A DNA stretch of 64,000 nt from Endomychus coccineus (taxonomy: Eukaryota; Arthropoda; Insecta; Coleoptera; Endomychidae). The DNA lies in NCBI GenBank assembly GCA_958510875.1, contig OY294069.1, positions 167,357,075 through 167,421,074 of the forward strand, read 5' to 3'. This document shows positions 225-46,600 of the stretch, piece after piece (within the stretch, counting starts at the first letter, position 1; the number at the start of each line of letters is the position of its first letter). Made by a program: the position numbers and the translations under genes. A model generated the notes under the pieces. The model saw only the letters and a list, made by a program, of their open reading frames with translations. It was not told where the DNA came from and made no database searches.

Positions 225-386
225 GCCTAGCAACACAGACAATCTTAACAATCCCAGTAAATCATGTGAATAGTACAGATCAAATGGTTAATTTAGCTTT
301 AAATAATGGACAAGTTGTCACGACGTCGTTAGCCAATTTGCAAGCGATGGCGCATACCAACTTATTAACAAACTCGAACAGCTCTG
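225..386 (+). CDS. pdm3: pdm3 exon (N-terminal region)
   Basis: The acceptor is a T-rich tract ending ttttag at 224 and the donor is gtgagt at 387. The exon is 162 nt and starts and ends after codon base 1. It encodes a segment reading LATQTILTIPVNHVNS followed by a hydrophobic/Asn-rich stretch like the region ahead of the POU domain in POU6 proteins. It is read from the splice site, not from the upstream ATG at 146, which lies in the intron. Confidence 0.8.
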
Positions 387-3300
387 GTGAGTAGACACAT
401 TATCCATTTGTCGTAACTTATTCATTAAGGGTATATTTTCTATTCAGCTCATGAATATAGGATTATACCCGATAACTTATTAATATTAGCTACAACCTCC
501 AAGAATCTGGTGAATCACATGACCAGTCCTTTCTTCAAGAAAAGGAATATTATACAATGGGCATGGTTGGAAATATAACGCCAAGTTATTACATAGCGAT
601 CCTGGCAGGATCGCCATGTAATAACAAGGCTCTTAGTAGGTTTCAGTTGGTTATAATTAGGTCGGGAGGTAAGTCATAGCTGATTTCATGGTTTATTGTG
701 ACACACATATAATTCATAGCATTACATACACAGTAGTCACTCGTTGAGACGAACCTAATAACTTGTTAAGACTTCTTAATGACTTTATCAATAATTTTGT
801 AGAGATTTATTTAAACTTTATTATAGAGGGATTCCAAGATCATCGCCTTGTTGTTCTACCGGTCAATGCAAATCAATAAAGTTGTAACCTCGCCTTGACT
901 TCAAGTATTATAACAACTCGACCCTGTTGATGTTACGTTTGATAATCATCACATAACTTTGTTTACTATTTGGATATCGTTACCTTTTATGTTCACTAGG
1001 CCACGATTCAGAATTCCTCGGAGATAGCTCCTTCATCATTCAATTACACTTTTCCAACCAAGTCGAAAATCACGAATATACGAAATTGTTCTTCGCTGAT
1101 AATGTCTCCATATGTTAGATCGATCCCAAAAATAGAATGTACGTACTAATTCCATCATTATTCGTAGGTCCCACCACGAACGGAACAATAGGACCCGGTC
1201 TCCTAGGAACAGCAACTCTCTCACATCTCCTGTCGAACGGAACCTCACCTCCACTCCTTCAGAATCTACCACAGATGATGACCGCATCGCATGCTCAAAA
1301 CCCATCGCCGCTCCTTAGTACCTTGAGTCAAGCCCTTCTGCCTTCACAACCTAGTTTGCACCCGTCGCCGCCCACGCCGCCTCACCGAAATCATTTGAGT
1401 GGAGCGAATCATTATCCAGAATCGAAGTTACACCAACAGTCGATACCCAGCAATTCCACGTCACCCAATGGACTCAACACCAGTCGGATGTCGTCGACAA
1501 ATGGAGAACTAACTATTACCACAACACATGGTCCTAATTCTAGTCAAAGTGGAAAACGTTCGCCGCCACGATCACTATCGCCCAATTGTACTGACAATTC
1601 AACGGCTGATTTGCTGGTCGACTCACCAAGTAAGAAGAATGTTCAAACTAGTGAGATTTATTCAGTAATAATATAACAAGAGAGTGAGAATAAATTGAAA
1701 ATAATTTGACAGATTTTTTGAAAAAATGGCAAACAAGTTTGAACAAAATCTGTCAAATTATTTTCTAATTTATCTAACTCGCGAGTTATATTTGACTAGA
1801 TTATTTTTTGATTCACAAATTTTTACAATAAAAATATATCAAAACATTCTTAACCTTAATTTTTGAGATGTCATTTTATTTAAATGTCGATCAATAAAAC
1901 TATTGATAAATTTAATTCAATTAACTATCAGAATATACGAAAATATCGTTGGATCTTTGTGAATATATTAAAAGACTGATTACTTATCAGAGTGTTTTTC
2001 GAAGTAGTTTCTAAAATATTTTTTGTTATTTCGGCATCAGAAAAGGTACTAAACCGATGATTTGCACTCATTTTATATAACGCGCTGACACATTTAAGTA
2101 ATTATTTTGACAACTATCTGACACTTGCTAAGCAAACAAAAGCTACAGTGATTATTCCCGAGAATAATCACAAGAGATTTATTCCCACTATAATAATGAT
2201 ATAATTGGCTGAAATGTACCCTTGCGACAAATAAAAAAGCATTTCATTGGTTTTAAGAAACGTCAAAAAATAATCATTTGACATTATTAAATTCAGAAAT
2301 ATGACACATCCATTCGTATTTTGGTTTTATTTCCAAAAATTAATCAATCAGTCAATTGTTAATCAATCAAATATTATATCACAAGGCCTATGAAATAATA
2401 AAGATTCTTGACCCAGTATGAATTATATATAAAAATTCTCGGGAAATAGGTCACATTAACACTCTGTTTTAAATATTTTCGTCTTTACGTACGTTTCGGT
2501 CTCATGACCATCATCAGAAGACTTATTACTTCAATAACCCGATTACTTAGAACTAATTACATTAACACAAAGCGTCCTTATCGCAAAAATTTCGTTTAAA
2601 TGCCAACGTCGCCGAAACGAGCAGAAACATGAAATCGGAATTATAACACAGGAATGTTACAGCGTAATATTAAAAATCCCCTAGTTAGTAGAATTATCAA
2701 CAAATACGACCGCATTTCTTAAATGTCTACAAGAGACTAACAGACGAGACCATCTCAAGTGTTCATTTATGAACCAGATGTCATGATTTATTAGGTAATA
2801 AAAGAAGGTCTCTGGCCTCTGAGAAATATTTTAGACAATTCTACCTAAAATAAACTTTTAACATTATAAGGACGCAAGTAGGAATTTGCAAGAATATTAA
2901 TTAATTAAATTAGTATAAATATGACTCAGTGTTTGAACGTCAGTCCTATGATTTACAGAATTGGAGTCACGTTTTATGTGAATCGTCTCCAAAATAGATC
3001 TTTCATAATAATTGGTTTCCTTAGCTAAAATATTAATATTTTTGTAATCAAATTGATGGTTATAATCAAAGCAGTGCTTAGCTAGGGCGGTGAAATTTTC
3101 TAAGTTATTATTTCTTGTGCTATACTTATGGCCAATTCTACTAAATAGTGGATTTTTAATATTACGCTGTAACATTCCTGTGTTATAATTCCGATTTCAT
3201 GTTTCTGCTCGTTTCGGCGACGTTGGCATTTAAACGAAATTTGTGCGATAAGGACGCTCTGTGTTAATACAATTAGTTCTAAGTAATCGGGTTATTGAAG

Positions 3301-6300
3301 TAATAAGTCTTCTGATGATGGTCGTGAGACCGAAACGTACGTAAAGACGAAATTAAAACAGAGTGTTAATGTGACCTATTTCCCGAGAATTTTTATGTAT
3401 AAAGGCCTATAAATTTAATCGATTAAACCATCCAACATATTTTGAGCATGATTTCGCTTGGAAAATAGTTGAATGAACAATAATTTAATAAAAACCCAAT
3501 GGTTTTTATTTTAAAATTATTGTACATGAAAATGTTTGCCAAGAAGCACATTCATGCATATCTAGTGGCATATGGCCAGATTATTTCCTGAATAATTTAG
3601 ATTGATGCCAACAACAAAGAATTGATTTCATTGACAATAAAATTTGACATTTTCTAACAATTTTTTCACAAACATCCTGAATTTAGTATTTTTGCTGAGA
3701 AGCTTTCTAAAGAATCTTACAGCACATATTTTTGTTTTATTCCGAACCAACCATTTGTTGTCCGTGAGCTTTTTGTAACCTCCCTGTGCAGTTTTAATGG
3801 ATATCGGGTTGTAATCTATTCTATCAACAACAAGACAAAAATCAAAACGAAAACGAATTTGGAGGAAGGATCTAGGAATTTAATCACTTATCCAAACAAC
3901 ATTTATTCAGATAATGGTGTTGTCTGATTGGTCTATTTCATAATGAGGGAAATAATCACTCCAAAGTACTACCTGCTCTAAGCGATGACACCATAACTAT
4001 GCAACGGAGGTTGATGTACAAGAATTTTACAAATTAGGCAGAAAGGGTAATTCGAAATATGCATCTAATTTCAAACGCTTCGAATCGAATTGTATAAGGT
4101 AATGTCACTAATTGTACAGACATATTCAGGCTCTGGAATAATCATGGAGAAGTAGGTGTGATGGAAGCTTTCGATCGTGATGTAAATAATAATTAGATCT
4201 AATAAAGCGTCTGGTAAATACGCATCGACCACTTTAATAATGAAATTGGGTAATTATCAATAAGAGATAATAAAAATTATAAGTAATTTATTTAATCGTC
4301 AATTAAGTTTATTACATGAAGAACATTAATAATAATTAAATAGCAATTTGGTTTTTGATATAACAATATTCCATAATTAATCATTTTATCATTTGCAGTT
4401 GTTTTAATTAAGGCTTTATAGGAACACAACGCCAGTTCTATTATTATAAAAGAATTAATTGGCTATTCAGGGTTCAGCCTGAAAGAAGATGTATAATTCC
4501 CAATCTTAAAAACTTTTCGTAGCATAATAGCCTTCATATGTTCCTTTTATATTCGATTAGTTATTCCGAACCATCATAAGCGAATTCATCAACTAATTAT
4601 ACCTTATCTAAATGAGTTTCGGAATTAATTCATTGTAATCGTGCACAAATCAGATCTTCTCCACATCAATTAATGTTTTCTTGACCTCATCGACGTAAAT
4701 GAGGTGTTATTTTACACGAAACATTGGCATTCAGTTCTGAAATATGATATAATGAAGTATTATTGAATTGGTATTACCCAAATTTGTGAAATATTGGGAA
4801 CATTGATGTTTGATTTTCATAATCCATATTTCCAGATAGTCGCGAAGTGCGAATAAGCAACTCTCGCTACAAGAACAAGAGCGGGAAGTTGCCAGTTCTA
4901 GCTCTTATTTTCGTTACTCTCGTTGTTGCTTAACAACAAAAGAATATACCTCTTGTCATTCTCTACGCGCGCTCGAAATGTCACACCATGCAAGTATGCA
5001 GCAAACCATTGACCTACGGTGCAGTAGTGTTGCCAGATATTATGGGTTTTCCCCCCAAAATTTATTTTTTGTCGTCTTTGGTAGGTAAACATCGAAAGAA
5101 AAGTAAAGGAAAGTATTTTATTCTGGACAAGATAACTAGTCACCTTTTGGCATCCCAAAGTTTATCGTCAATCATGGGTTTCCCCAATTCTATATTTCTA
5201 TTAAGACCATCACATACTAGGTTGATGCTATCAGAAGTTATAATGTTCGTTATTTTGCAGATCAACCCACAATAAACCAGACGAACAGCAATGTAATAGA
5301 TGGAATCAATTTAGACGAAATAAAAGACTTCGCAAAAGCGTTTAAACTGAGAAGATTATCGCTAGGGCTCACGCAAACACAAGTAGGCCAAGCTCTTAGC
5401 GTCACCGAAGGACCGGCATATAGTCAAAGTGCAATTTGCAGGTAATTAACACAACCTTGAACTTGAAGCCAGGACACAAACATACTTACTAAAGGCGCAA
5501 CTAAGCTCACGTATTATTCAATTATTAATACTCAATTTCCAATAGTTTTTAGCGAGATGGGCCATTTAGGAATTCTTAGTTTAGAAAATTAGCAACGACG
5601 TACGTTTCGTTAAACGAGTTCTTGATCGAAAGAAAGCCTCATACCCAGTTAATAGAACATGCATTTATTTTGAAAAAATTTTGGTACACGAAAAATTGCT
5701 TGTCATTTATTGTTGTTCTTATTGTAAATATTTTTTCAAAATTAAGGCCTTCTCCAACGAACGACCTATTTCGGATCGTTGTTTGGATTTGAACTATCAC
5801 TTCCATTCCAGATATGTTTCAACTAACAACGATCAACCTGTAGCAGGATCCGAATTCCATTAACGATCAGAGGAACATCCAAGGACTAAATATTACATAC
5901 AATATCATCGAATATCATTTGTGAATACCTACGCATAGTCACTTGGAAAATTATTCTTCTTCTTGATTTGTATATCTCTAGACAGGGAATTTGGCGTACA
6001 AGGTGAAATATAATTATAGAGTCATCTTATATTCTCAATAATCTTATTACTGCACTCTCTACATCCTCAATAATCCTATTAAATGATGATTTACCAAAAC
6101 ATTGCCATTAAGTGGAAGTGTGTAAGAAAAAATTGATTCAAATGCAAACTCTTGAGGATGATAGTGATACTAAAACATAATTAATTATAAACAATGAATT
6201 TCTATTTGACATCTCCAAAGAAATTATTAGAATTGCATACAAGGTCAAAAAATGTACTGACTTTATCCTAAATTTGGAATGTGATAGAATACTATTCTTC

Positions 6301-9300
6301 AATTCCAAATCTGATTGTCAGTAAGGGCAAGCAAAAGATTCTTATAAACATTTGCCATTCTTCGCATTTTTAGATTTTCGTTTCCAGGTAAAAATTATCC
6401 AAATTGTGCTTGCAAAGGAATGATAATTCCATATGAAAAATTCAATTTAAATATTTGTGTCACTCGCGCAGTCACTATTCTCTTTCCGCCTAATTTACTC
6501 AATATTCTGACTTGCTTGAAGATCTCAATATTTTATAATAGAGAGCTTTTTAGTTGAGCTTCCTCCTCTATCTTTAGGATTAGAGATCAAACGATGGGAC
6601 TTATTCAAACTGGGTCAATTCTAGGATGATTCACTGTCTAATCTCATCCCGTTGGTGTTCAGTCAGGGAAACATTCATGCCAATCCATATTTTATTGTAA
6701 AATACTTTTTCATCCTCAAGAATCAAACAAAATGGCTATGAATCACCTTCCAACATATATTTCCTACGATAGAAACCCAATTCCTAAAAAATATATAATT
6801 AATATCTTATTCAGTCTGTATTTTAATACAGTAGCAATGTTTCCATGAGTCGAAAACCCCAACTTTTTTCTCCAACTCCCTTGAAAATTTGCTCATTGAT
6901 TCACCGGTGATTGAAAGTCTTATTTGACCATGTACAAGAGTAGTTCATGGGCAATTTGTTGAACTTATATATCTCAACCACTTTCAATAATATTTCAAAT
7001 AAACATATAAACAACTTAAACAATAAATTCGAAATATATTCTAGTCATTGATGACACCATAACAGAAGCATCTAACTAGTCATTATTTAAACAGTACCGC
7101 CAATTGGATCATTGAAATTTCCTAATATACTCACATCGTTATATGTATCCCCAATTTTAGCAGAATGTATCACTTCCTGGTACATGTTCATGCATCAGTG
7201 CTATTACTTGTTGCATATTCATGAACGTAAATGAAATAATTCATCATCATCATCATCGACAGATCAATAATAACTCAAGCGGTTCCTAATTTTGTCTTCA
7301 GGCTACATCAAAGCGAAAGAATTCAGGACTTAATTAATACAACTGAATGTCCCGACTCTCTATATAAATTGGCATACTGTGCGTTATACTGGATACAATG
7401 AATCATTGGACAGAAAAATCTCAGGCACTGTCGAGTACATTTGTTATTTTCACACATACGTGAGGCCTGAGTTTCTTAGTTGCGCCTTGAATTAGTAATC
7501 TGATCTTAGTAATGTAATTGGTTTTTTCCCAGTGCCCTGGCATCTCAGATGTTTGCAGCCGCGCAACTATCCTCACAGCAGCAAGCAATGTACGTAGACA
7601 ATTATTTGCACTATGATAGATTCAATTTTACACGTATATGATACTGAGTGTGCTCAGCTAAGAGCCAGGGCACTGGCATCCTATAACTTCTGTAGAGCCA
7701 ATTGAAATTTGATAAATTATAGTATGTCAGTGTCCTGTGCCTCTGTTACTTTTGGATTAACATAATAAACTTTTCCTGGGTCAAGTAGGCTTCGTTTTTA
7801 TTCGACACATAATTGATGAAGCGTTTTGTTCTTAAATTATTAGGGTGTGCTTAAGCTGTTAAGCAAAAAACCAGCAAAAGAAAATGGTAAATGAGATAAA
7901 ATTTAGAATTCCAGTTAGAAACTTCGCCGTTTGATAGGTGAAGGAAGTTTGACAAGTCCTGAGCTTGACAATTATTATCAAGCTGTGACCAGTCTGAGCT
8001 AGTCTGCCTAGGTGAAATCGCTCCTGGTGGAATAACGACGTGAGAGGTCGTTGGCAGACAAGTTAGCTCTCTTTTGAATAGAGTTGGATAATTTCAGCGT
8101 TATTTGTTTGGGAACTGAATATCAACATGTGAGCAGTACTCAAAAACAGATTGAATAGTGTGCTCTGTAGATCATGAGGAGCTGCTGGGAAGCGAAGTGG
8201 CTCTTGACACGGAATGATAAACTGAGTTCCGTTGAAGCATTTTTCGCAATGGACCTCACTTGATCGTCCTATGAAAGGGCGCTGCTAGTGATGATACTGA
8301 GCATAGATATTGTGAATTCCACAGGAATAGACATCATCATATCAGGAATCCACGTTCTTGGATAGTATACAAACTTGAATTTTGGTTTCATGAAGTTATT
8401 GCATGACTTGTCCTACGTCTTGCACCTCTGGCTTTATTGCATGATATAGAGGCTCTGGAGTAGAATGCGGTATGAAGTGTAACATCATCTGAAAAGCTAT
8501 GGAGGAGGCAGGACACTACCACCAGATCGTTGATATGTAATAAAAACAAATTTGGCACCAAGACACATCTCTGTGAAACACCAACGTTGAAGGTCTTTCT
8601 ATCATCTTTGGTTAGGTTTATGATTAATTTTCAGAGGACTTTGATATTTGTCGATAAGTGTGATATAGGTAGTGGATGAGAGGCGCATTGCCCAGTTCGA
8701 TTGATGAATTTTCCAAATTTTGCAAAACGGGTATTCATTGGGTAAAACAGATGGAAGATATTTAACTCTCGTTCCCCGAGTTTTCTGTTTGGTGTACAAG
8801 TGCATTCATTTTTCTGTGTTGGCTTGTTCACGATACACAAGATGCCAAAGAATGCCACTGGACTTGTTGACAAACTGAGACCTTAAGGAAAGAGAGTTAA
8901 CATCGCGATTCAAGCTCCAAAGAGAATACTTTTCAGTGATCTCAAGTCAGATCTGGGAATGGAAATGATAGTTTTAAGTTCATAATAATTTTTATCATCA
9001 AATAAAACCAAATCATTGTATGCTCCTATAGGTTCGAGAAATTGGATATAACTCCAAAGAGTGCACAGAAAATAAAGCCAGTTCTAGAACGATGGATGAA
9101 GGAAGCTGAAGACAGGTTAGTATTCGAAATTCGTTTGAGGTTCAATTTGCCATTATCTGAGTTTGATAGTTACATTTACTGTTTCTATAATCAACTGAAA
9201 AATACCTATCTGCTCAATGATTATAAGATCTTGACTCTCTTGGTTGGAGGCTTATAGAATGTGCAATATCCATTAGAAGGATCTACCTTTCGGCATATGT

Positions 9301-11399
9301 ATCATCCATATCTATGTTGGATGGATGATATATGATATCGCTTACTACTATTTGATAAATTTGTTCACGCTAACTCATGGAACCTATTACAGTATCTTCT
9401 CAACATAAACTCTACTCCTCAATGAAAATGGTTTCACGTTATTGTACCAATTATTCGAAAATGAAGAAGACATCTAATAATGCGTATAAGTCTTTCTTAT
9501 TTCAGATACAAAAGTGGGCAGAACCATCTCACGGACTTCATAGGAATAGAGCCATCGAAGAAAAGAAAACGAAGAACGTCTTTTACTCCTCAAGCCCTAG
9601 AACTGCTGAACGCTCATTTCGAAAGAAATACACATCCCTCAGGTATTTACATTACATTAGCTTCGAAATTATACTCTAATAGTTTCTCCTAAGAATGCTA
9701 TTCAAAATATTTTTTTGCGCTTTTTCGAGCGATTGATTCCTACATGTTCACGCCGTTTAAATACCCAGGCGAAGATGGAATCTTCCCAGCTCTCCTACAA
9801 GAGGGTCAGGAAATTACCATCAAGTTATTGGTGAAAATCTTCCGATTTTACATTGCCACTGGCTATGGCGTGCAGTAACAGTCATGTTCATTCCAAAGGC
9901 GGGTAAAACCCAAGCTAAGGCATCCCGCCCTATCAGTCTAACTGACTCACTGACGGACTATCCCTTACACTGTCGTCAATACGCCTACCAAACTGGCCTC
10001 TCAACTGAAACGGCCTTGCATCATCAAATCAGACGATAGCTCGAGAGGAATACGCCCTGGGGTATTTATGGGCATCGAAGAGGCGTTGAGAAGCAAGGAA
10101 TCGGTCCGACACTAGTCCGGTGGATTGGGGCCATGCTATGTAGGCGTACGATAAAGGCGCAACATAACAGATGCGTTGTACAAACCACCACTACAGAAAA
10201 GGCTGCCCACAAAGAGGTGTCCTATCTCCGCTTCTGTGGTGTCTTGTAGTCGATGGACTCTTGGAGAAGTTGGAAGAGGCAGGGTTTTATGCCGATGACT
10301 TGGTTGGCGTCACCTTTGGACGGCACTTAGGGTCACTGTGCGAGCTGCGAAACACTCTGCTCGTATGGTTCACAGGCTGGTCCAAGGTAGGTCAGGATTA
10401 GCAGATAATCCTATATGTAGAAAATGCAGAGAGGTGGAAGACAATGCCTCTCACATCCTGTTGGAATGCTCTGCTTTGACATCCCTCAGTCACCGTTACT
10501 TCGGCGAAGCAAAACTACCCCCAGAAGAACTTATGGAAGCCAGCATTAGCAATATTCTGGGTTTCTGGCGGGCCACAAACCTGCTAGAATAGAATAAGCT
10601 TCTGACCACGGGGTGCACAATGGGTCCAACTAAGTGACCTAAAAGTGTAACTGGGGGTTAAGCCCCTCCCCTCAATTGATGATGATAATGATGATGTTCA
10701 ACATAGTTGATGTCATATCTGACAGGAACCCGATTTGTTCTTCAATAATTTATTACTAGGTGATCAGTGTTCCTGATTTGAAGTGATTTATTCTATATGT
10801 AGGCTGCACATACTTGCACTTGAATGTGCTGCAGTTTTACAACTGAACATAGCGAATATTCTAATTAGACTATTTGTTGCTTTTGCTGCCACCATCTAGT
10901 GAAATATATGTCTCCGACAATCATACATTATATCATATTTTCAACCCCGTTCTACCCAAAAACACAAGGTGGTGACACTGGATCTTCCTCTCATTGAGAA
11001 ACATTTCTCAGTAACTGTTCATCAATTGTTATAACAGGCTTCTTTTATTTTTGTGAATAGTATTGTCACTATTTGCACTGGAAAACTAGTGGGAAGCAGT
11101 TTCATTTGAATCATTGGTTATGGTTATGTCGAATGGAGAATAAATAACCGATTGATTCTTTTAGGATTTCTTTGAATCGATAGTTGGCTATAATTTATTA
11201 ACTAGACACTCACTATTATTGAAATGAATACTGAAAATAAATATAATTATAAATCCATTATTTTCAAATTTTAGGTACAGAAATAACTGGACTTGCTCAC
11301 CAATTGGGATATGAACGAGAGGTCATCAGGATATGGTTTTGCAATAAGAGACAAGCTTTGAAAAATACGGTCAGAATGATGTCAAAAGGCATGGTCTAA
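225..11399 (+). CDS. pdm3: pdm3 / POU6F-type POU-homeobox transcription factor, 3' part (multi-exon, 5' exons outside the window)
   Basis: Nuclear DNA-binding transcription factor of POU class VI; the fly ortholog acts in neurons. Exons are 225-386, 1168-1629, 5261-5441, optional 7533-7589, 9032-9115, 9506-9642 and 11275-11399. Every acceptor and donor is AG/GT and every split codon joins in phase. Without the optional exon the visible part encodes 383 residues. In order these are a low-complexity N-terminal region rich in S, T, N and P; the POU-specific domain (from DEIKDFAKAFKLRRLSLGLT through FEKLDITPKSAQKIKPVLER); a short linker; and a homeodomain starting KKRKRRTSFTPQALELL and ending with the recognition helix REVIRIWFCNKRQALKN. 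The C-terminus MMSKGMV just after the homeodomain is typical of POU6. The first visible exon begins inside a codon, so the start lies upstream of the window. Family assignment is strong; the N-terminal exon set is incomplete. Confidence 0.93.
1168..1629 (+). CDS. pdm3: pdm3 exon (Ser/Pro/Asn-rich linker region)
   Basis: The acceptor is attcgtag at 1167 and the donor gtaagaag at 1630. At 462 nt it is a whole number of codons, with phase 1 on both sides. The phase joins the exon ending at 386 (giving SSGPTTNGTIG) and the exon starting at 5261. The product is low-complexity, rich in Ser, Pro, Asn and Thr, as expected of a poorly folded activation or linker segment. It has no recognisable domain of its own. 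Confidence 0.8.
1688..1775. repeat. Near-perfect 31-nt stem hairpin in a pdm3 intron
   Basis: The arms at about 1688-1717 and 1745-1775 are near-perfect reverse complements around a 27-nt loop; the inner 21 nt (GAAAATAATTTGACAGATTTT) pair exactly. The hairpin lies about 60 nt after the donor at 1630. It could be a short palindromic MITE remnant or a hairpin RNA. Neither can be decided from sequence alone. Confidence 0.5.
2431..3400. mobile_element. Foldback Penelope-like element (inverted arms around a GIY-YIG fragment)
   Basis: Two near-identical arms of about 265 bp (2431-2697 forward and about 3136-3400 reversed) flank a short core. Each outer end starts with TTCTCGGGAAATAGGTCAC and contains the ACGTACGTTTCGGTCTCA block seen at the 3' end of the long Penelope element at 52.8-55.1 kb. 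The core encodes, on the - strand (about 2897-3120), the end of a GIY-YIG endonuclease domain whose last ~80 residues closely match that element, ending SHIYTNLI. It carries no RT and is a non-autonomous relic in a pdm3 intron. Confidence 0.75.
3410..5260. other. pdm3 intron, nothing coding recognised
   Basis: A+T-rich intron. Open frames on both strands around 4898-5275 have no recognisable motif and overlap each other. No transposase or RT motif was seen. Confidence 0.4.
5261..5441 (+). CDS. pdm3: pdm3 exon: first half of the POU-specific domain
   Basis: The acceptor is tattttgcag at 5260 and the donor gtaattaa at 5442. It encodes the first helices of the POU-specific domain, including LGLTQTQVGQALSVTEGPAY, and breaks off at QSAIC plus two bases of the next codon. 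That is inside the helix that contacts DNA. Confidence 0.95.
5442..7532. other. pdm3 intron upstream of the optional exon, no gene seen
   Basis: A+T-rich intron containing only short frames without motifs. No transposon hallmark was recognised apart from short ATC-rich microsatellite-like sequence near 7240. Confidence 0.4.
7533..7589 (+). CDS. pdm3: Optional 57-nt pdm3 exon inserted in the POU-specific domain
   Basis: This 57-nt exon has a strong pyrimidine tract plus cag acceptor (7522-7532) and a consensus gtacgt donor (from 7590). It enters and leaves after codon base 2, exactly like the exons at 5441 and 9032, so it can be included or skipped without a frameshift. Inclusion replaces the Arg after SAIC with a Ser and adds 19 residues rich in Ala, Gln and Ser (LASQMFAAAQLSSQQQ) before FEKLD. 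It is too short to appear as an ORF. The mammalian paralog POU6F2 is known to have an alternative insert at the corresponding place. Transcript support is not visible here. Confidence 0.72.
7780..8600 (-). pseudogene. Non-LTR retrotransposon reverse transcriptase fragment (decayed)
   Basis: On the - strand, 8460-8575 reads VSQRCVLVPNLFLLHINDLV then FSDDVTLHTAFY. These are the conserved RT blocks normally written GVPQGSVLxPxLFLLHINDL and (F/Y)ADD. Farther along the same strand, near 8130, FEYCSHV matches the usual EYCSHVW block at the end of the RT. Stops and frameshifts interrupt it. Jockey/CR1-like RTs share these blocks, but the clade is not certain. It lies inside a pdm3 intron. Confidence 0.6.
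9032..9115 (+). CDS. pdm3: pdm3 exon: second half of the POU-specific domain
   Basis: The acceptor is cctatag at 9031 and the donor gttagt at 9116. It encodes FEKLDITPKSAQKIKPVLER and WMKEAED, the last helix of the POU-specific domain. Its first base completes the Arg codon left open at 5441, which proves that skipping the 57-nt exon keeps the canonical domain. Confidence 0.93.
9506..9642 (+). CDS. pdm3: pdm3 exon: POU linker and first half of the homeodomain
   Basis: The acceptor is cttatttcag at 9505 and the donor gtattt at 9643. It encodes the short linker ending GIEPSKKRKRRTSF and homeodomain helices 1-2 up to HFERNTHPSG. The basic cluster KKRKRR is the N-terminal arm of the homeodomain and a likely nuclear localisation signal. 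Confidence 0.95.
9760..10690 (+). pseudogene. Non-LTR retrotransposon fragment (RT and C-terminal zinc knuckle)
   Basis: The + strand keeps separate blocks in shifting frames: PGEDGIFPALLQEG near 9770; VMFIPKAGKTQAKASRPISL near 9885; GCPQRGVLSPLLWCLVVDGL then FYADDLVG at 10200-10300; and a C-terminal CRKCREVEDNASHILLEC knuckle at about 10405-10475. The last block is typical of the region after RNase H in I/R1-type elements. The element ends in a GATGAT-rich tail at about 10,678-10,697. It is broken by frameshifts, has a large internal deletion, and sits between two homeodomain exons of pdm3. Confidence 0.75.
11275..11399 (+). CDS. pdm3: pdm3 last exon: homeodomain recognition helix and stop
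   Basis: The acceptor is caaattttag at 11274. The exon reads GTEITGLAHQLGYEREVIRI then WFCNKRQALKN and ends VRMMSKGMV with TAA at 11397-11399. The WFCN motif with Cys at homeodomain position 50 is diagnostic for POU homeodomains. A 3' UTR follows, with a candidate AATAAA at 11563-11568. Confidence 0.95.
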
Positions 11400-19757: not shown

Positions 19758-20904
19758 TCACACTTGTGTATCTTCTCTTGTGTGTATAGAGTTGATATGA
19801 CGTTTTAAAGTTGATTTCCGATTGCATCCATAATCGCAATACCCACACTTGTGTATCTTCTCTTCTGTGTGTATAGAGTTGATGTGACGTTTTAAAGTTG
19901 ACATCTGAGGGCATCTATAATCGCAATACTCACACTTGTGTTTCTTATCTTTAATGTGTATAAAGTTGATGTGACTTTTTAAATTTGACAACTGAGAGCT
20001 TCTAAAATCGCATAACTCACACTCGTGTAACTTCTTTCTTGTGTGTATGGAGTTAATGTGACTTTTTAAAGTTGCCAGCTGAGTGCTTCCATAATCGCAA
20101 TGCTCACACTTGTGTATCTTCTCTTTTGTGTGTATAGAGTTGATGTGACGCTTCAAAGTTGATACCTGAGGGCTTGTATAATCGCAATATCCACACTTGT
20201 GCATCTTTTCTTTTGTGTGTATAAAGTTGATGTGACTTTTTAAATTTGACATCTGAGTGCTTTCATAATCGCAATTCTCGCACTTGTGTATCTTCTCTTT
20301 TGTGTGTCTAGAGTTGATGTGACGTTTTAAAGTTGACAATCGAGGGCTTCTATAATCGCAATACCCACACTTGTGTATCTTCTCTTTTATTTGTGTAGAG
20401 TTGGTGTGACGTTTTAAAGTTGGCATCTGTGGGCTTGCATAATCGCAAAACTCGAACTTGGGTATTTTCTGTCTCTTGTGGGCAGAGTTGATGTGACATT
20501 TTAAACTTGACAACCGAGGGCTTCCATAACCACAATACTCACACTTGTATATCTTCTCTTTTGTGTGTGTGGAGTTGATGTAAACCGTTGGGCATTTGCT
20601 CTCGACATTATTATTTGAAATAATTTCACTTGTGTTACTGGTGTGAGGTACCAAGTTAAAGGATGAAATATTATGAGTGGAACATTCATTTTCACTGTAA
20701 TGTGCAACCACTACATGATTTTCCGTGTTTGTCACATTATCACAATTATACCCACTACATTTCAAAGATTCCTTCGTATCCAGGATTCCCATAGAACTAT
20801 TTATACATTTGTTGTCTGAACAATCAAAATTTTCATGGTCACCTCCGTTTGAATCCTCTTCGATATATTCCTGTGGCAGATCTTCCAATTCCTCATCTTC
20901 AATT
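19758..20904 (-). CDS. ZNF-A exon 2 (zinc-finger exon)
   Basis: The acceptor is cattttcag, just upstream of 20904. It carries the DLPQEYIEED segment, an Asn/Ser-rich spacer and nine finger units. Compared with ZNF-B the first several fingers are missing, and finger two is degenerate. Confidence 0.8.
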
Positions 20905-23900
20905 CTGAAAATGTAAAGATGGAACAATATTTTTACTTGCTGAACCCGACAATGAAGGCTTAAAAAAACATTGGATTAGTGAATCGGCCTAGTTATTCGA
21001 ATCTTCCAAATTGCGTTTTAAACTAAAAGAAGACTTTAATTAACAATTTGTTTGATTGTGAAAACAAAGTCATGAAAAAGGTATAACGTTGATTCCTGCC
21101 ATCCTTTTTTAGTTCCCTTGTTAATTAGATGTCATAATATTTGCAAATTTATCTGCAGAGCAATGTTTTTAATTATAACTGTTTATTGTTTAAACAATGA
21201 CAGATATACACCCGAGATAATAATAATAATTCTTCATCGCCATGAATTTTCAGGAAATATCAGCATTGTCAACGATAAAGTAGAATAGATATTGACAATC
21301 ATAATACAATATCAAAGAGTTCGTTAATTTATAAAATATATAAACAGGATGAAATATGTAAATAATAAAATAACATACCACATGAATAAAAGAAATTTTC
21401 TATTAAAGAACATTTAAACACTGCCTCAAAACCAAATATCGAATCACAATCTTTGGAAGATTGGGGTAGGCAATTATAAGCCTTAACAGATTGGAAGGAA
21501 ACATTTCTTTCAATAAAAGAGGATTTCCGTTTTGATATTCTTAAGAGTGTAAAAGTTTCAGTGTAATTTTACAAATATATCACTAGGAAGTGCCCGATTT
21601 TTCAAAGTACTTCTTGGGTAATGTTCTTGGAGGCAAATTGTAGATACCCCACAATATGCATTTTTGTGAAGAAAATAGTTTTATAGTAAAAGCTGGATAC
21701 CTGAATGAGGTACCATAGGATAAAAGTGATTGTACATATGGAAAGTAAAAGATTCTAGTTATAGTTAATGACCAGTGATGTCTCAAATACGTTAAAAGAA
21801 TCCAAAAGGACACCTAAAAACTGTACGTTATCTACCTCTGGAATTGCTTTTGCATTAAGCAAGTTGTAAAGTGATTCCAAAAGTTTGACTCTACTATCAA
21901 CTTTGTTTTGCTGATGTTGAAGCTAATTAATTGTACACCAATTATTCATTTTGTTTAGTCTCAGAGGAATACCCGAGATCTCGCAGTCTGTCACTATATG
22001 GGACGGGTCATCAGCGAACTAATTTTGTAAGTGATTGTGATGCAAGCCTAAAAAGTCAGTAATCGATTACAAACACGTTTGTCAATTTATAACTCGACAG
22101 ACTCCATTGCACCCCTCGAAAGTTGTTGGTATCTACCGTCGACGACCGAATATTGAACTCATGCGCGGAGTCGCGGCATTTCTGAGAATCCGAGTTCGCT
22201 CACCCCAGCACTAGCGGGTTTTTCCCGGATTCTCACGCTACATGCTAAGCTCCTCCTTCGCTCCATAAGCATAGTGCTTTCGGCTAGACCAATCACAGGC
22301 AATATCGCGACTTTTCCTCCCGACTTTTTGAATAAAAGGTAACTGCATTCCTTCATCGGTATGCATTGCTAGCTTCGTCCCAGCTTTCTGTAGTGGCCCC
22401 TACCCTGGCAAAACCACCTGATCACCATCATCATCATCATCACCAACTCATCAACCGGAGGCTATGCTCCCCAAAGGACATCTCTCTGCGTATCGATAGT
22501 GCTCCACCGTTGACATCTACTCGTTGCCCCCACTCGCAGGCCCTAGCGTCTCGCCGTTCGGCACAGTATGACTGCTCATCGCCCCGCTATCCATCAACGC
22601 TGCTTGCTCGCTCTACCTGTGTTTGCATTCAGGTAAGTTGTTGTATTATTTTTCCCAGTGAATGCCTAGTGCTTATTTATTATCACGTCACTCTATTCAT
22701 TCTATTGTATGTCCAACTATACATAGTGCTGCACTGATATAACTTACATTTGATTTGCTCCAGACTTTACATATACCCCCGGTATATGGACCAGTGCAAC
22801 ATCCTAGTGAACAGTGAATATTTTGTATTGTGTGTATTGAACATTAGATCTGTCTCGCCCTACGCGCTGCGTATACCTGGTATACCAGTCTACGTAGACT
22901 TAGCATCGCCCAGTGCTCCTGCCTGTGTTTATATTTCTGTTCCAGAGCTAGCTGCCGGACGCAACGACCTCACAAGGCCCCCTTGACGGGCCCCACATCA
23001 CCACATATCCAACTCCACGATATCAGCGGTATCAAATTGACGCTCCAACCTAGGACTCCATCTACCTCGCACGATACCCTTCGGTATTAGTTGACGCTCC
23101 AAACATCAAGAATAATAGTGGGTCTCAGAATGAGCCTTGAGGAACCCCTTGTTTGATTTTCTGAGGCGCCGTATAATTCAAATATTTTTTTAGTGTATTG
23201 AATTGTATTGTTTGTAAGTAATCTGGCTGCGTCTTGAAAGGTATGATCAAATGAGATTCAAGCATACTCCTCTCACACCGCAGGATTAAATATATTCCAA
23301 CTACCCTATTTTTCTCATCCAACATTTGATATATGTAATTGAGAGAATGATATATATAGCACTCGGTAGAATTTTTTGACATGAATACATATTGATTAGG
23401 AGCTAACGTATTGTTCTTTCCATGAAACTGGATAATCTATTATACATCACTGTCCCAATTACTTAGAGAAAGCTGACAAATATAGACAAAGGTTAATATT
23501 TTTTTAGAGTGAATCTGTGGTTATAGTTGTTCAAAGACTTCTCACCACTTAAAGCAGATAAATACTGATCTGGATGAAATTTTGTACACTTGATCTTCAA
23601 TTCAAGAGGAGTCACTTTTCACAATTATTGTATTGGTTAAGACTTCATGTCAATCATTGACAGCTTTGTTCATGGCTAAATTAACAGTCTTCATCTCATA
23701 TTTAATAAGGTTGGTAATATGTTATTTCAGTTCATTCAACATCTGTCCCATAATAGGTGTTATCATTTACTTTCAGTTCTATTATAGGTGTTATTATTAA
23801 CTTTAAGTCCCATTATAGACGTTATTATTCACTTTGTTGCATGTCAAACAGTAATAAATAATACATCGATTCTTTAATAGGATAATTCTAAGCTACTTAG

Positions 23901-25781: not shown

Positions 25782-27255
25782 TCACGTTATCAAATGATCA
25801 CAGTTCATGTGTATAGAGTTCATATGACGTTTTAAAGTTGACTTCCGATTACATCCATAATCACAATACTCACACTTGTGTATCTTTTCTTCTGTGTGTA
25901 TAGAGTTGATGTGACGTTTTAAAGTTGACATCTGAGGGCATCTATAATCGCAATATTCACACTTGTGTCTCTTCTCTTTTATGTGTATAAAGTTGATGTG
26001 ACTTTTTAAATTTGACAGCTGAGAGCTTCCAAAATCGCATAAGCCACACTTGTGTATCTTCTCTCTTGTGTGTATGGAGTTGATGTGACTTTTCAAAGTT
26101 GACATCTGAGTGCTTCCATAATCGCAATATTCACACTTGTGTATTTTCTCTTTTGTGTGTATAGAGTTGATGTGACGTTTCAAAGTTGATACCTGAGGAC
26201 TTGTATAATCGCAATATCCACACTTGTGTATCTTTTCTTTTGTGTGTATAAAGTTGATGTGACTTTTTAAATTTGACATCTGAGTGCTTTCATAATCGCA
26301 ATACTCACAATTGTGTATCTTCTCTTTTGTGTGTGTGGAGTTGATGTGACGTTTTAAAGTTGACAACCGAGGGCTTCCATAATTGCAATACTCACAATTG
26401 TGCATCTTCTCTTTTGTGTGTGTGGAGTTTATGTGACGTTTTAAAGTTGACATCTGAGGGCTTGAATAATCGCAATACTCGCACTTGTGTATTTTCTCTT
26501 TCGTGTGTGCAGAGTTGATGTGGCGTTTTAAACTTGACACCCGAGAGCTTCCATAACCACAATACTCACACTTGTATATCTTCTCTTTTGTGTGTGTAGA
26601 GTTGATGTGACGTTTTAAAGTAGATATATGTGGGCTCCCATAATCGCAATACTCGCACTTGTGTATCTTTTCTTTTGTGTGTGTAGAGTTGATGTGAATT
26701 TTTAAAGTTGACAACCTAGGGCTTCCATAATCGCAGTACTCACACTTGTATATCTTCTCTTTTGTGTGCATAGAGTTGATGTGACGTTTTAAAGTTGACA
26801 TCTGAGGGCTTACATAATCGCAATACTCACAGTTGTGCATTTTCTCCCTTGTGTGTTTACAGTTGATGTGAACTTTTAAGCAAGAGACATAATCGCTTTC
26901 GAAATCGCAATGTTTACATTTATTTATCTTTGCCCTGGGGCATTTGCTCTTAACATCAGTTTTAAAAGTAATTTCACTTGGGTTACTGGTGTGAGATGCC
27001 AAGGATGAAATATTATCATGAGTGGAACATTCATTCTCCCTGTTCTGTGCAACCACTACATGATTGACCATGTTTGTCACATCATCACAATTATACTCAC
27101 TATATTTCAATGAGTCCTTGGTATCCAGAATTCCCATAGGACTATTCATACATTTGTTATCTGAACAATCAAAATTTTCATTTTCACCTCCATTTAAATC
27201 TTCATCATCTTTGATATATTCCTGTGGCAGATCTCCCAATTCCTCAGCTTCGATT
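25782..27255 (-). CDS. ZNF-B exon 2 (zinc-finger exon)
   Basis: It runs from the acttccag acceptor to a TGA/TAA-bounded end after finger 13 (KRHMNSIHMNCDHLIT). The repeated DNA unit is 84 bp. The last fingers are nearly identical to the matching ones of ZNF-A. Confidence 0.88.
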
Positions 27256-27762
27256 CTGGAAGTAATAAGATTAATCACCTAAATATCATAAACAAAAATG
27301 TATGGGTGTGTACAATTGTGAGGGTGGCACAATATCACAGTTAAGCCATGAAGAATTCCTATAAATTTTCTAATGAAGATACCGAACACTTCCCAAATAA
27401 GGTTCATCATTTAATTGTTTTTGTTATCTATAATAGAACTAAAACTTGCCTCAAGACTGTGATTCTAGTTTTTATTCCACACTCTTTCAAAATTTTACAT
27501 GTATTCTCCATAACTTGTTAAACAGAGCAAATTATGAAATTTAACTCTATAAAAAGAACATTATGCCCAATATGCCATTCCTCTTCTATTTGAACTCTCG
27601 AAATATTGTTTTTTATTGACATACTTACTTTATCTCGAATTCCTCAAAATCTTCAGATTCCTCTTTAATTTCCTTTATATCTATGTATTCCAGAATATCA
27701 CTTTCGGATTTAATTTCAATCCGACCTTCCCAATTTGGATCATTGTTTACAGTTGATAGCAT
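25782..27762 (-). CDS. C2H2 zinc-finger protein ZNF-B (two exons, 13 fingers)
   Basis: The start is ATG at 27762-27760. Exon 1 is 27762-27629 (donor gtaagtat) and exon 2 is 27255-25782 (acceptor acttccag), joined after codon base 2; 535 aa. The N-terminus is acidic (YIDIKEIKEES, then GDLPQEYIKDDEDLNGG) with no zf-AD Cys pattern, SCAN or KRAB. A Ser/Asn-rich spacer follows, then 13 consecutive C2H2 units with C-x2-C-x12-H-x4-H spacing and near-uniform linkers of HTKEKIHKCEYC type. All zinc ligands are present in each finger. Probably a sequence-specific nuclear DNA-binding protein; target unknown. It is a tandem paralog of ZNF-A, and the copies share promoter-proximal and intron sequence. The product name is only a class assignment. 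Confidence 0.85.
27629..27762 (-). CDS. ZNF-B exon 1
   Basis: 134 nt, ATG to GT donor. It encodes an acidic N-terminus (IEIKSESDILEYIDIKEI). The exon, its donor and about 70 bp upstream of the ATG are closely matched at ZNF-A, which supports the start codon. Confidence 0.75.
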
Positions 27763-43600: not shown

Positions 43601-46600
43601 TACTGCAAGCTGTATTGATATTAATTAATCAAGGCAAATGTTATATACGAACGAGTATGATAAAATAAGTAAATTGATAGCCTTTAGTAAACAAAGAAAA
43701 CCAGAGAAGGGCTCGTTATTACACCCATGAACAAACATTCTAACATTCAAAAAATAATGAAATTCTTGAAGGAAAACAGATATATTCATTTGAATCTTGA
43801 TTCCACTAAGAAGTTCAGAGAAATTATCTACCATTAAAAATTGTAAAAACATTTTTAACTCATTTAACCTCACGGTGATGCACCCACAGGCTCCTAAATT
43901 ATATTCTTCCGTTAATATATCTATGGTTTCGGCGTTTACGTAGTGTAAATTCATAATACTTCAGAAGTTGGAGAATAAAACTCAAATTTTACACAAAACT
44001 TTTAACATTTAATTTAAAAATGCTGACAAATTGTTTCACCACACTGTGGCATTATCAAAGCGAGGAGTTATCAACTAAAGCTAAATCTAAAAATATGTCC
44101 TTAAATATCAGGGATCAGAATGTGATGCAAATTGAGGGATGGGGGTGGATAATGGTGGGAGTGTGTTTACAAAATTGTTAACAAGCGGTGAATTATATGT
44201 GTCGATTTGATCATTTAATATTACATTATTATTGTTTTTTGCGTGTTTCAAAATTTCTATGGATTCTAATATATTAAGTTTATGTCCTTTTTCCTGAATA
44301 TGTAGAATATCAGGATTAAGGGTGAAATTGTGGTTATGTTCTAACAGGTGATTTGCGTAATTAGAGTCTTCTTTTTTGAGCCTGTAACTTCTCAAATGTT
44401 CATTGAACCTTACGCTGAAACTGCGTCCAGTTTGTCCTATGTACAAAGCACTACAGTCATCACATCTCAGTCTGTAAACTCCAGATTTCTTTAAGTTATC
44501 TTTTTTAGATTTCGAGTTATTAATATACGAGCATAGGTTATTTGTTGTTTTAAAGGCGACGTTTTTATTCTGTTTTTTAAGGAATTGAGATATTTTTAGT
44601 GAATGTTTACCTAAATATGTTAGACATGTGAAATTTGATTTTGTATTATTATTAATTTGCGGATAAATTATGCTTAAGGCTTTTTTATTGAGTTTATTTT
44701 GGAGTATTTTATTAATTATCTTGACATTATAACCGTTATTTTTGGCAATATCTACGATTCTGTTTAATTCTAAATGGAAATTATCTTCACTTAATGGGAC
44801 ATTAATTAATCTATGTATCATACAATTATATGCTGCTAGCTTATGTGATTGTGGATGTAAAGAAGTGTTGTGTATTGTGGTATCTGTGTGGGTGGGCTTG
44901 TGATAAATAGCGAAAGAAAAGTAATTATTTGTGTGTGAAATTGTCAGATCTAAAAAGTTTAAGGACTTGTTGTTTTCCATCTCTAATGTGAATTCTATAT
45001 TTGGGTGTAAGTTGTTGATATAGGTGAGAAAAGAATTTATTTGACGGTTACTGCCTGTATATATGACGACGTAATGGTGAATAATAGACATGGCTTTTCA
45101 ATTTTCGCAAAACTTCTCATACAGATATTACTATAAATAATTATTCTAACCATCCAATTTGTCACAAACTACCAGCATATCATAGCATGGTCCATAGACT
45201 TGTTTCAAATCCAAAATTTCCAGATGGAGTTAGATATTATAAAACAGACAGCAATTAACAATAATTTCGACCACAATCTGATAGATAGTATGTTGAAAAA
45301 AGGTGAATGTAATATAGAAAATTTCCTTCTTTATCTCAATGAATCGGAAAGTTATAGAAGAATTATATATTTTGGTATACTTTCGAATGAAATAAGTCAT
45401 GAAAAGAAGTAAAATCTGGAATCTATAACTTAACTTGTGGAAGCTTATACAAGGGAAAGGTGAAAAGTTCCTGAGAAATGATTTATTTGATCAGAACTCA
45501 TTCTATTTCTCAACATAATCTCCTTGTAGCCCGTTACACTTCACTCAACCTTTTTCTAATTTCTCGATCCTTTCCAAATAATACGATTTCGGCAGTCCTT
45601 CAAAATAGGCGTTTGTTTAAGCGATGACCTCATCGTTGGAGCCAGATTTCTTTCCGCCGGACCATTTCTTCACGTTTGGAAATGATAAAAAATCGCAGGG
45701 GTCCAAATCTGGAGAATATGGTGAATGACGAACCAATTTGTAGCGCAATTTATGCAATTTTGCCATTGCGACTGAGGACATGTGCGTCAGTCCGTTGTTC
45801 TGGTGAAAGAGCGCTTTTTTCTTTGATAAATGCGGTCGATTTTGCTTCAAGTCGGCGTCGAATCGATACAACATCACTGCATCATATACGCCGGTGATCG
45901 TTTTGTTCTTTCCAAGGTAATCGCAATAGACGATACCGTGTGCATCCCAAAAAACTGTCGCCATGACTTTGTTGGCCGATAAACCCATTTTGGCCTTTTT
46001 CGGCTTCGATTCGTCAGAACAAGTGCACTGTTTCAACTATTCTTTGATCTCTGCTGTGTTGTGATGGAACAATGTTTCGATCACGGTTACGAAACGATGC
46101 AAAAAGTCTTTTTTATCGCGCTTGAACATCGCCAAACACTCCTTTGAAGTTGCCAACAGAGAGCAAATGCGGCACACATCTGGCAGATAGCTTTCTCATA
46201 TTCAAAAATTCATGCAAAATATTCCGTACCTGTTCATTCGAGATGTCCATAACCGCAACAATCTCGTGCACTTCAACTCGCCGATCCTCCAATATCAAAC
46301 CATGGAATTTATGGAGAATTTTTGGCCTTGTAATCTCAATTGAACGACCAGAACGTTCGGCGTCCTTCGTGGTCCTACTACCATAACGAAAATCAGTAAG
46401 CCACTAGTGAATCGTTCCAATTGATGGTGAGGAGTTTCTATGATGTTCAATAAGCGATGCTTTGGTTTGCGTAATGTTCTTTTCATGCAAGAAATAATGT
46501 TTAATAAAAGCGCGAAATTAATTTTTTCCCGTGTTTACAATTATCTTCAAGGCTGCTTGCTTTTGACATATCAGTCTGAATATTTCAATGTGTTCTAGTT

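What the first reader, a model, noticed from the sequence alone, without database searches (positions are those of the whole stretch)
5261..9115. Optional 57-nt exon would insert 19 residues in the DNA-recognition helix of the pdm3 POU-specific domain
The exons at 5261-5441 and 9032-9115 split the third helix (QSAIC|R|FEKLD). The 7533-7589 exon has consensus splice sites and the exact phase to be included or skipped. Inclusion breaks the recognition helix with an Ala/Gln/Ser-rich insert, so the isoform would bind DNA mainly by its homeodomain or not at all. The mammalian paralog POU6F2 is known to carry a splice insert at the corresponding position, but with unrelated sequence as I recall it, suggesting either deep conservation of the switch or convergence.
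Basis: partly seen in the sequence, partly recalled or inferred. Interest (0 to 1): 0.82.

Follow-up and report, generated by a model that had tools for sequence, protein, structure and literature searches.

The report
Insect splice insert splits POU recognition helix
A beetle nerve-cell gene regulator carries a small optional exon, shared by insects from mayflies to flies, that inserts about 19 amino acids into the helix it uses to read DNA, at the same point where a related vertebrate gene has its own, different optional insert.

Summary
The window holds the last exons of a beetle pdm3 (POU class 6) gene. The 57-nt exon at 7533-7589 has good splice sites and is phase-neutral: skipping gives QSAIC-R-FEKLD, inclusion QSAIC-SALASQMFAAAQLSSQQQAM-FEKLD. 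Of 221 POU6 proteins retrieved, 147 carry an insect-type insert at this site, across 11 insect orders from mayflies to flies, and 73 are plain. In 13 species both forms are in the records. Five insert-bearing proteins sit on 2.1-3.9 kb contigs that look like spliced transcripts. Inclusion splits the Pfam Pou domain, replaces the DNA-contacting arginine (Oct position 49) in 143 of 147 cases, and goes with low AlphaFold confidence around helix 3 (42-46; 81-89 in a plain control). Human POU6F2 isoform 1 has a 36-residue insert, described in 2023 as found in no other POU protein; it falls at the same codon, with unrelated sequence and a different splicing mode. Best reading: an old insect splice switch that weakens POU-specific DNA reading and leaves a homeodomain-led, probably repressive isoform. 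DNA binding and tissue regulation are untested, and a published model lets the vertebrate insert isoform still use its POU-specific domain. Ten searches found no description of the insect exon.

The parts
225..386 (+). pdm3 coding exon A (N-terminal, LATQTILTIPV...)
   Evidence: AG/GT borders, open frame joined to exon B; exons A+B 57-66% identical to the 15 best of the retrieved proteins, 14 from named beetles
1168..1629 (+). pdm3 coding exon B (low-complexity N-terminal region)
   Evidence: AG/GT borders, frame continuous with A and C
5261..5441 (+). pdm3 exon C: POU-specific domain helices 1-2 and first half of helix 3, ends in codon AG|
   Evidence: matches POU6F1 3d1n
7533..7589 (+). optional cassette exon, 57 nt, phase 2/2, encodes S-ALASQMFAAAQLSSQQQA-M
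   Evidence: splice sites and phase; exact peptide in nine retrieved proteins and a recognisable version in 147 of 221
9032..9115 (+). pdm3 exon D: second half of helix 3 (FEKLD) and helix 4 of the POU-specific domain
9506..9642 (+). pdm3 exon E: linker and first part of the homeodomain; an upstream in-phase acceptor at 9491 would add SLSYF to the linker
11275..11399 (+). pdm3 exon F: homeodomain recognition helix, C-terminus, stop TAA 11397-11399

Best explanation
The exon at 7533-7589 is a genuine, ancient insect cassette exon of pdm3. Shown: splicing it in replaces the recognition-helix arginine with about 20 residues, leaves homeodomain and frame intact, and in other insects both forms are on record in one species. 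Inferred: the insert form cannot read the POU half-site (TGCAA/T) normally because helix 3 is interrupted and Arg49 is gone, so it relies on its homeodomain (TAAT). It would then work as a repressive or competing isoform against the plain form, with the splice ratio setting the output of pdm3 targets. The conserved, Ala/Gln-rich insert probably does something of its own as well, such as packing on the domain or binding a partner, because a purely disruptive insert would not need to keep its sequence. Confidence in the anatomy and in conservation across insects is about 0.97; the figure below is for the whole mechanism. I lowered it from 0.55 to 0.5 on rechecking, because published modelling lets the vertebrate insert isoform use its POU-specific domain at one site.
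For: Phase-neutral exon with good splice sites. Insert at the identical site in 147 of 221 proteins and 11 orders (names; orders assigned by me). Both forms in 13 species, 11 of them with the same longest-contig length listed for both forms. Insert-bearing proteins on short contigs that look like spliced RNA: P0010, P0027, P0081, P0126, P0135. Insert mean pairwise identity 0.67 across one representative of each of 11 orders, against 0.24 for the N-terminal half and 0.72 for the linker. First insert residue Ser in 143 of 147, last residue never Arg, so Arg49 is normally lost; Arg49 is listed as a DNA-contacting residue of Oct4 (PMC4720428, passages). The Pfam Pou match breaks into two stretches at the insert, against one in a plain form. 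AlphaFold pLDDT 42-46 around the insert versus 81-89 in the plain control, homeodomain blocks 90-97 in both (different proteins and alignments). Drosophila authors conclude that the Pdm3 Hox motif contact is repressive and the Pou contact is needed for activation (PMC4356613, passages). Vertebrate POU6F2 isoform 1, with its own insert here, lowers GNRH1 expression in cells (PMC10436210, passages).
Against: No binding, reporter or tissue data for the insect isoform. The AlphaFold insert model still aligns to the POU6F1 POU-specific domain over 86 residues at 1.6 A, so partial POU-specific function may survive. PMC10436210 (passages) says isoform 1 was earlier reported to act at a FSHbeta promoter region, and that modelling placed its POU-specific domain on ATGC of an octamer-like GNRH1 site, although docking to the plain octamer failed. 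Many protein records are gene predictions. Four halictid bee proteins begin the insert with RLFP and so keep an Arg. Insert length varies from 14 to 24 residues, and some species (Megachile, Polyplax, Trichogramma) have diverged inserts.
Confidence: 0.5

Rival explanations
1. The insert retunes rather than disables the POU-specific domain: the fold stays, helix 3 runs on into the insert, and the isoform prefers other sequences or spacings.
For: Insert model aligns to 3d1n over 86 residues at 1.6 A; its range 71-175 leaves 19 residues unaligned, presumably the insert; helix 106-122 runs from SQSAIC into the insert. Insert is conserved. QSAIC before the insert is present in all 221 proteins held. 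Published modelling placed the POU-specific domain of POU6F2 isoform 1 on an ATGC site (PMC10436210).
Against: Confidence under 50 for residues 114-138; Arg49 lost; FEKLD displaced by 19-20 residues in most inserts.
Confidence: 0.28
2. The insert is mainly a protein-interaction or regulatory peptide placed on the DNA face; loss of POU-specific binding is a by-product.
For: SALA start and Q/M positions strongly conserved in the 94 inserts of 20 residues while overall length varies.
Against: No partner known; no motif match was sought beyond Pfam.
Confidence: 0.12
3. Splicing noise or prediction artefact: a tolerated exon with no function.
For: Many records are predicted proteins; no RNA from this species.
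Against: Conservation across 11 orders, contigs that look like spliced transcripts, same-species pairs.
Confidence: 0.03
4. On origin, whatever the function: the insect and vertebrate inserts descend from one ancestral bilaterian alternative segment at this intron and have diverged beyond recognition.
For: Same codon in the same gene class; best local alignment SALASQMFA/SAIASSLSA.
Against: 169 of 2000 shuffles score as high (541 and 396 for bug and mayfly inserts); cassette exon versus alternative acceptor; the five crustacean proteins and one rotifer protein listed are all plain.
Confidence: 0.15

Closest known systems
Vertebrate POU6F2 (RPF-1) isoform 1, 36-residue insert
   Same: Same gene class; same codon of the POU-specific recognition helix (fish P0121, net 36 residues between QSAIC-R and FEKLD; the isoform-2-specific primer in PMC10436210 reads across AIC-R-FE); in-frame; both isoforms expressed in mouse; isoform 1 lowers GNRH1 expression
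   Different: No significant sequence similarity and about twice the length; made by an alternative 3' acceptor of the last exon, not a cassette exon; keeps an Arg at both ends (fish), whereas the insect insert normally loses it
Plain Pdm3/POU6F1 (Brn-5) POU domain, PDB 3d1n
   Same: Closest solved relative of the window's POU domain; plain-form model aligns to 3d1n over 85 residues at 1.2 A
   Different: No insert; continuous recognition helix
Neuronal microexon programme of flies and mammals
   Same: Small, in-frame, deeply conserved alternative exon in a neural gene
   Different: 57 nt, above the limits of 27, 30 and 51 nt given in abstracts listed; neural regulation not tested

Membership tests
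POU class 6 / pdm3 | POU-specific domain plus POU homeodomain of class 6 type | tested here: met
   116-residue region of the window's plain form 100% identical to Cryptolaemus POU protein P0149; best solved structure for the window's insert-form POU domain is POU6F1 3d1n, 216 bits against 100 for the next; Pou and Homeodomain Pfam hits on the relatives P0081 and P0157
Alternative cassette exon | own acceptor and donor, skipping keeps frame | tested here: met
Alternative cassette exon | both inclusion and skipping occur in one species | tested here: met
   13 other insect species in protein records; many of these records are predictions
Alternative cassette exon | expressed and regulated in the window's species | not testable with these tools
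   no RNA data at hand
POU6F2 isoform-1 type insert | in-frame insert at QSAIC|R|FEKLD | tested here: met
   P0121 fish and 147 insect-type proteins share the site
POU6F2 isoform-1 type insert | insert sequence related to the vertebrate insert | tested here: not met
   no significant similarity to the fish insert: 169, 541 and 396 of 2000 shuffles reach the score for beetle, bug and mayfly inserts
POU6F2 isoform-1 type insert | made by an alternative 3' acceptor of the downstream exon | tested here: not met
   7533-7589 has its own donor GTACGT and lies 1.4 kb upstream of exon D; vertebrate mode from PMC10436210
Neuronal microexon | length of at most about 30 nt (27, 30 or 51 in different abstracts) | tested here: not met
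   57 nt; limits from abstracts

The most novel reading that the evidence does not exclude
Insects and vertebrates have each installed a splice-controlled insert in the same recognition-helix codon of the same neural POU6 gene. Each would convert a two-part POU/homeodomain reader into a homeodomain-led repressor, so POU6 would carry a convergent, splicing-operated switch of DNA-reading mode.
Probability: 0.35. Interest if true: 0.78.

Novelty: new variant of a known kind. Interest (0 to 1): 0.62.

Why it matters
To my knowledge, splice inserts inside a DNA-recognition helix are rare. A 2023 paper describes the vertebrate POU6F2 insert as found in no other POU protein (PMC10436210, figure legend); insect POU6 has one at the same codon, conserved from mayflies to flies. 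The papers I saw link Drosophila Pdm3 to odorant receptor expression, axon targeting and sleep maturation, and none of the passages I read distinguishes these isoforms. If the switch works as proposed, Pdm3 RNAi and ChIP results mix two proteins with different DNA reading. It also gives a genetically easy insect model for the poorly understood POU6F2 isoform 1.

Tried and rejected
Own-genome search for paralogues or duplicate exons: the identical request was sent eight times and never answered. Mechanical exon scan alone: 58 candidates, so not decisive. Vertebrate homology of the insert by shuffling: not significant. A degenerate DNA pattern for SALA..QM was badly written (its first codon is split by the intron) and found nothing; not used. 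Papers that I hoped would describe the vertebrate insert in detail (PMC6578531, PMC4139503) or pdm3 itself (PMC2572001) are not held. Passages of PMC4245813, PMC7185995, PMC7993999, PMC11373662, PMC4407788 and PMC5784889 were seen for isoform or insert statements; none of those shown mentions the insect insert. PMC4245813, a POU family phylogeny, says that unique insertions were removed from its alignment, so it could not have shown one. Literature absence rests on the ten searches, in a CC-licensed library only. Protein searches list only the best 120 rows of 1689, 1221 and 1619 matches and only certain lengths, so absence in crustaceans and other groups is weak evidence. Predicting the fish insert form was considered and left out in favour of a plain-form control. 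VIA-align rows for the insert model are mostly homeodomain matches; besides 3d1n, four whole-POU entries (9pfn, 9pfo, 9pfp, 1oct) and 1hf0 appear at 7.1-7.5 A, too loose to say anything about helix 3.
Full report
What is there. The + strand of the window carries the 3' exons of a POU class 6 gene of pdm3 type: A 225-386, B 1168-1629, C 5261-5441, optional O 7533-7589, D 9032-9115, E 9506-9642, F 11275-11399 with the stop at 11397-11399. The window's plain form is 100% identical to a ladybird POU protein over a 116-residue region (P0149). Its N-terminal exons A+B are 57-66% identical to the 15 best of the retrieved proteins, 14 from named beetles and one unnamed. I therefore take the species to be a beetle. 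The nearest solved structure is human POU6F1 (3d1n).

The optional exon. Exon C ends in AG and exon D begins with G, so skipping writes codon AGG (Arg) between QSAIC and FEKLD. Exon O begins with T and ends in AT, so inclusion writes AGT (Ser) ... ATG (Met) around ALASQMFAAAQLSSQQQA. Acceptor and donor score like those of the other exons (11/15 pyrimidines, 7/9 donor matches; others 10-12 and 7-8). The intron contains 58 open, phase-neutral candidate segments, so the frame alone is weak evidence. O is the only one reaching both of its own scores, a cut-off chosen after the fact.

Conservation. A protein search focused on the insert listed 120 proteins: 119 carry an insect-type insert at exactly this site, and the last is a fish POU6 with a different insert. 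A search from a sand fly added longer proteins, including Drosophila montana, Hermetia, Anopheles, Aedes, Cloeon and Periplaneta. A search with the plain form supplied plain proteins. Of all 221 proteins held, 148 have an insert (147 insect-type: 142 from named insects and 5 unnamed; 1 fish) and 73 are plain. These are proteins, not species; several species occur more than once. By the names (orders assigned from my own knowledge), insert bearers come from 11 orders: mayflies, cockroaches/termites, stick insects, lice, thrips, bugs, Hymenoptera, beetles, caddisflies, Lepidoptera and Diptera. Across one representative per order, chosen by me, the insert averages 0.67 pairwise identity, against 0.24 for the N-terminal half, 0.72 for the linker, 0.89 for the homeodomain and 0.95-0.98 for the two halves of the POU-specific domain. 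Length varies between 14 and 24 residues.

Both forms are on record. Insert and plain forms are listed for 13 species: Tribolium madens, Tenebrio molitor, Leguminivora glycinivorella, Ostrinia furnacalis, Harpegnathos saltator, Cardiocondyla obscurior, Temnothorax curvispinosus, Vollenhovia emeryi, Dinoponera quadriceps, Pogonomyrmex barbatus, Trachymyrmex septentrionalis, Diachasmimorpha longicaudata and Polyplax serrata (names, forms). In 11 of them the same longest-contig length is listed for both forms; Harpegnathos and Polyplax differ. Many are predicted isoforms. Other support for RNA inclusion comes from source 'lgn': P0010 (655 residues, longest contig 2412 bases), P0027 (624, 2904), P0081 (247, 2104), P0126 (1047, 3942) and P0135 (797, 3013). 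In this window the exons A-F alone span 11 kb, so these short contigs are most simply spliced transcripts. That is my inference; the tool does not say what 'lgn' is. Plain forms also occur in that source (P0169, P0183).

How it probably works. In Drosophila, Pdm3 binds a TAAT Hox motif 2-3 bp upstream of a Pou motif. Mutating Hox motifs of the Or59b cluster gave ectopic expression and mutating the Pou motif lost it; the authors conclude that Hox interactions are repressive and Pou interaction lifts heterochromatin suppression (PMC4356613, passages). An isoform without normal POU-specific reading but with an intact homeodomain would thus be expected to repress or compete. The vertebrate parallel partly fits: POU6F2 isoform 1 failed to dock on the octamer in silico, yet lowered GNRH1 expression in cells (PMC10436210, passages). 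The same paper cuts the other way: it cites earlier binding of isoform 1 to a FSHbeta region, and its modelling put the POU-specific domain on ATGC of an octamer-like GNRH1 site. The mechanism is inference for insects. Sequence conservation of the insert argues that it does more than interrupt.

Insects and vertebrates. PMC10436210 states that isoform 1 arises from a second acceptor of exon 11 and calls its 36-residue insert unique among POU proteins (figure legend). Its isoform-2-specific primer reads across AIC-R-FE, which places the insert at this junction (translation mine). Fish P0121 shows a net 36-residue insert, R...R, between QSAIC and FEKLD; I take it to be the same insert without having compared it with the human letters. 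Insect and fish inserts are not significantly similar (169, 541 and 396 of 2000 shuffles reach the score for beetle, bug and mayfly; beetle against louse, as a control, 1 of 2000). The five crustacean proteins and one rotifer protein listed are plain. The searches are length-limited and show only the best 120 rows, so absence outside insects is provisional. I favour separate origin at a shared, probably old intron position, at modest confidence.

Status. The insect insert exists in database isoforms but I found no description of it in ten literature searches (listed under Tried and rejected); subscription journals are largely not covered. I rate it a new variant of a known kind.

Noticed in passing
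9491-9506: Tandem in-phase acceptors (9491 and 9506) before exon E; [quoted passage not shown] Retrieved proteins show variable short peptides there (SLLNS, SLFNS, SASDS, SHWN, SHSS), so pdm3 may make four POU-domain isoforms.
   Followed up: partly
P0111, P0115-P0117 (halictid bees): Insert begins RLFPSALA, as if an acceptor 12 nt upstream were used; this keeps an arginine before the insert.
   Followed up: no
2423-3402: Long inverted repeats in the B-C intron (233 nt arms, 94% complementary; 50 nt arms, 98%), probably a mobile-element terminal structure.
   Followed up: partly
44108-45097 (-) and 52820-54622 (+): Long open frames that look like Penelope-type elements to my eye; only a GIY-YIG match just under Pfam's cut-off for the first and no Pfam match for the second.
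   Followed up: partly
19758-20975 (-) and 25782-27278 (-): Two open frames on the opposite strand with arrays of C2H2 zinc fingers, similar to each other by eye.
   Followed up: partly
about 9740-10680: Intron E-F appears to hold decayed non-LTR retrotransposon sequence (read by eye).
   Followed up: no
P0123, P0134, P0142, P0143: Records named ecdysone-induced protein 74EF, pumilio homolog 2 and nubbin-like are in fact POU6 proteins with the insert (P0123 also has an extra Pfam domain): mis-named or fused gene models.
   Followed up: no
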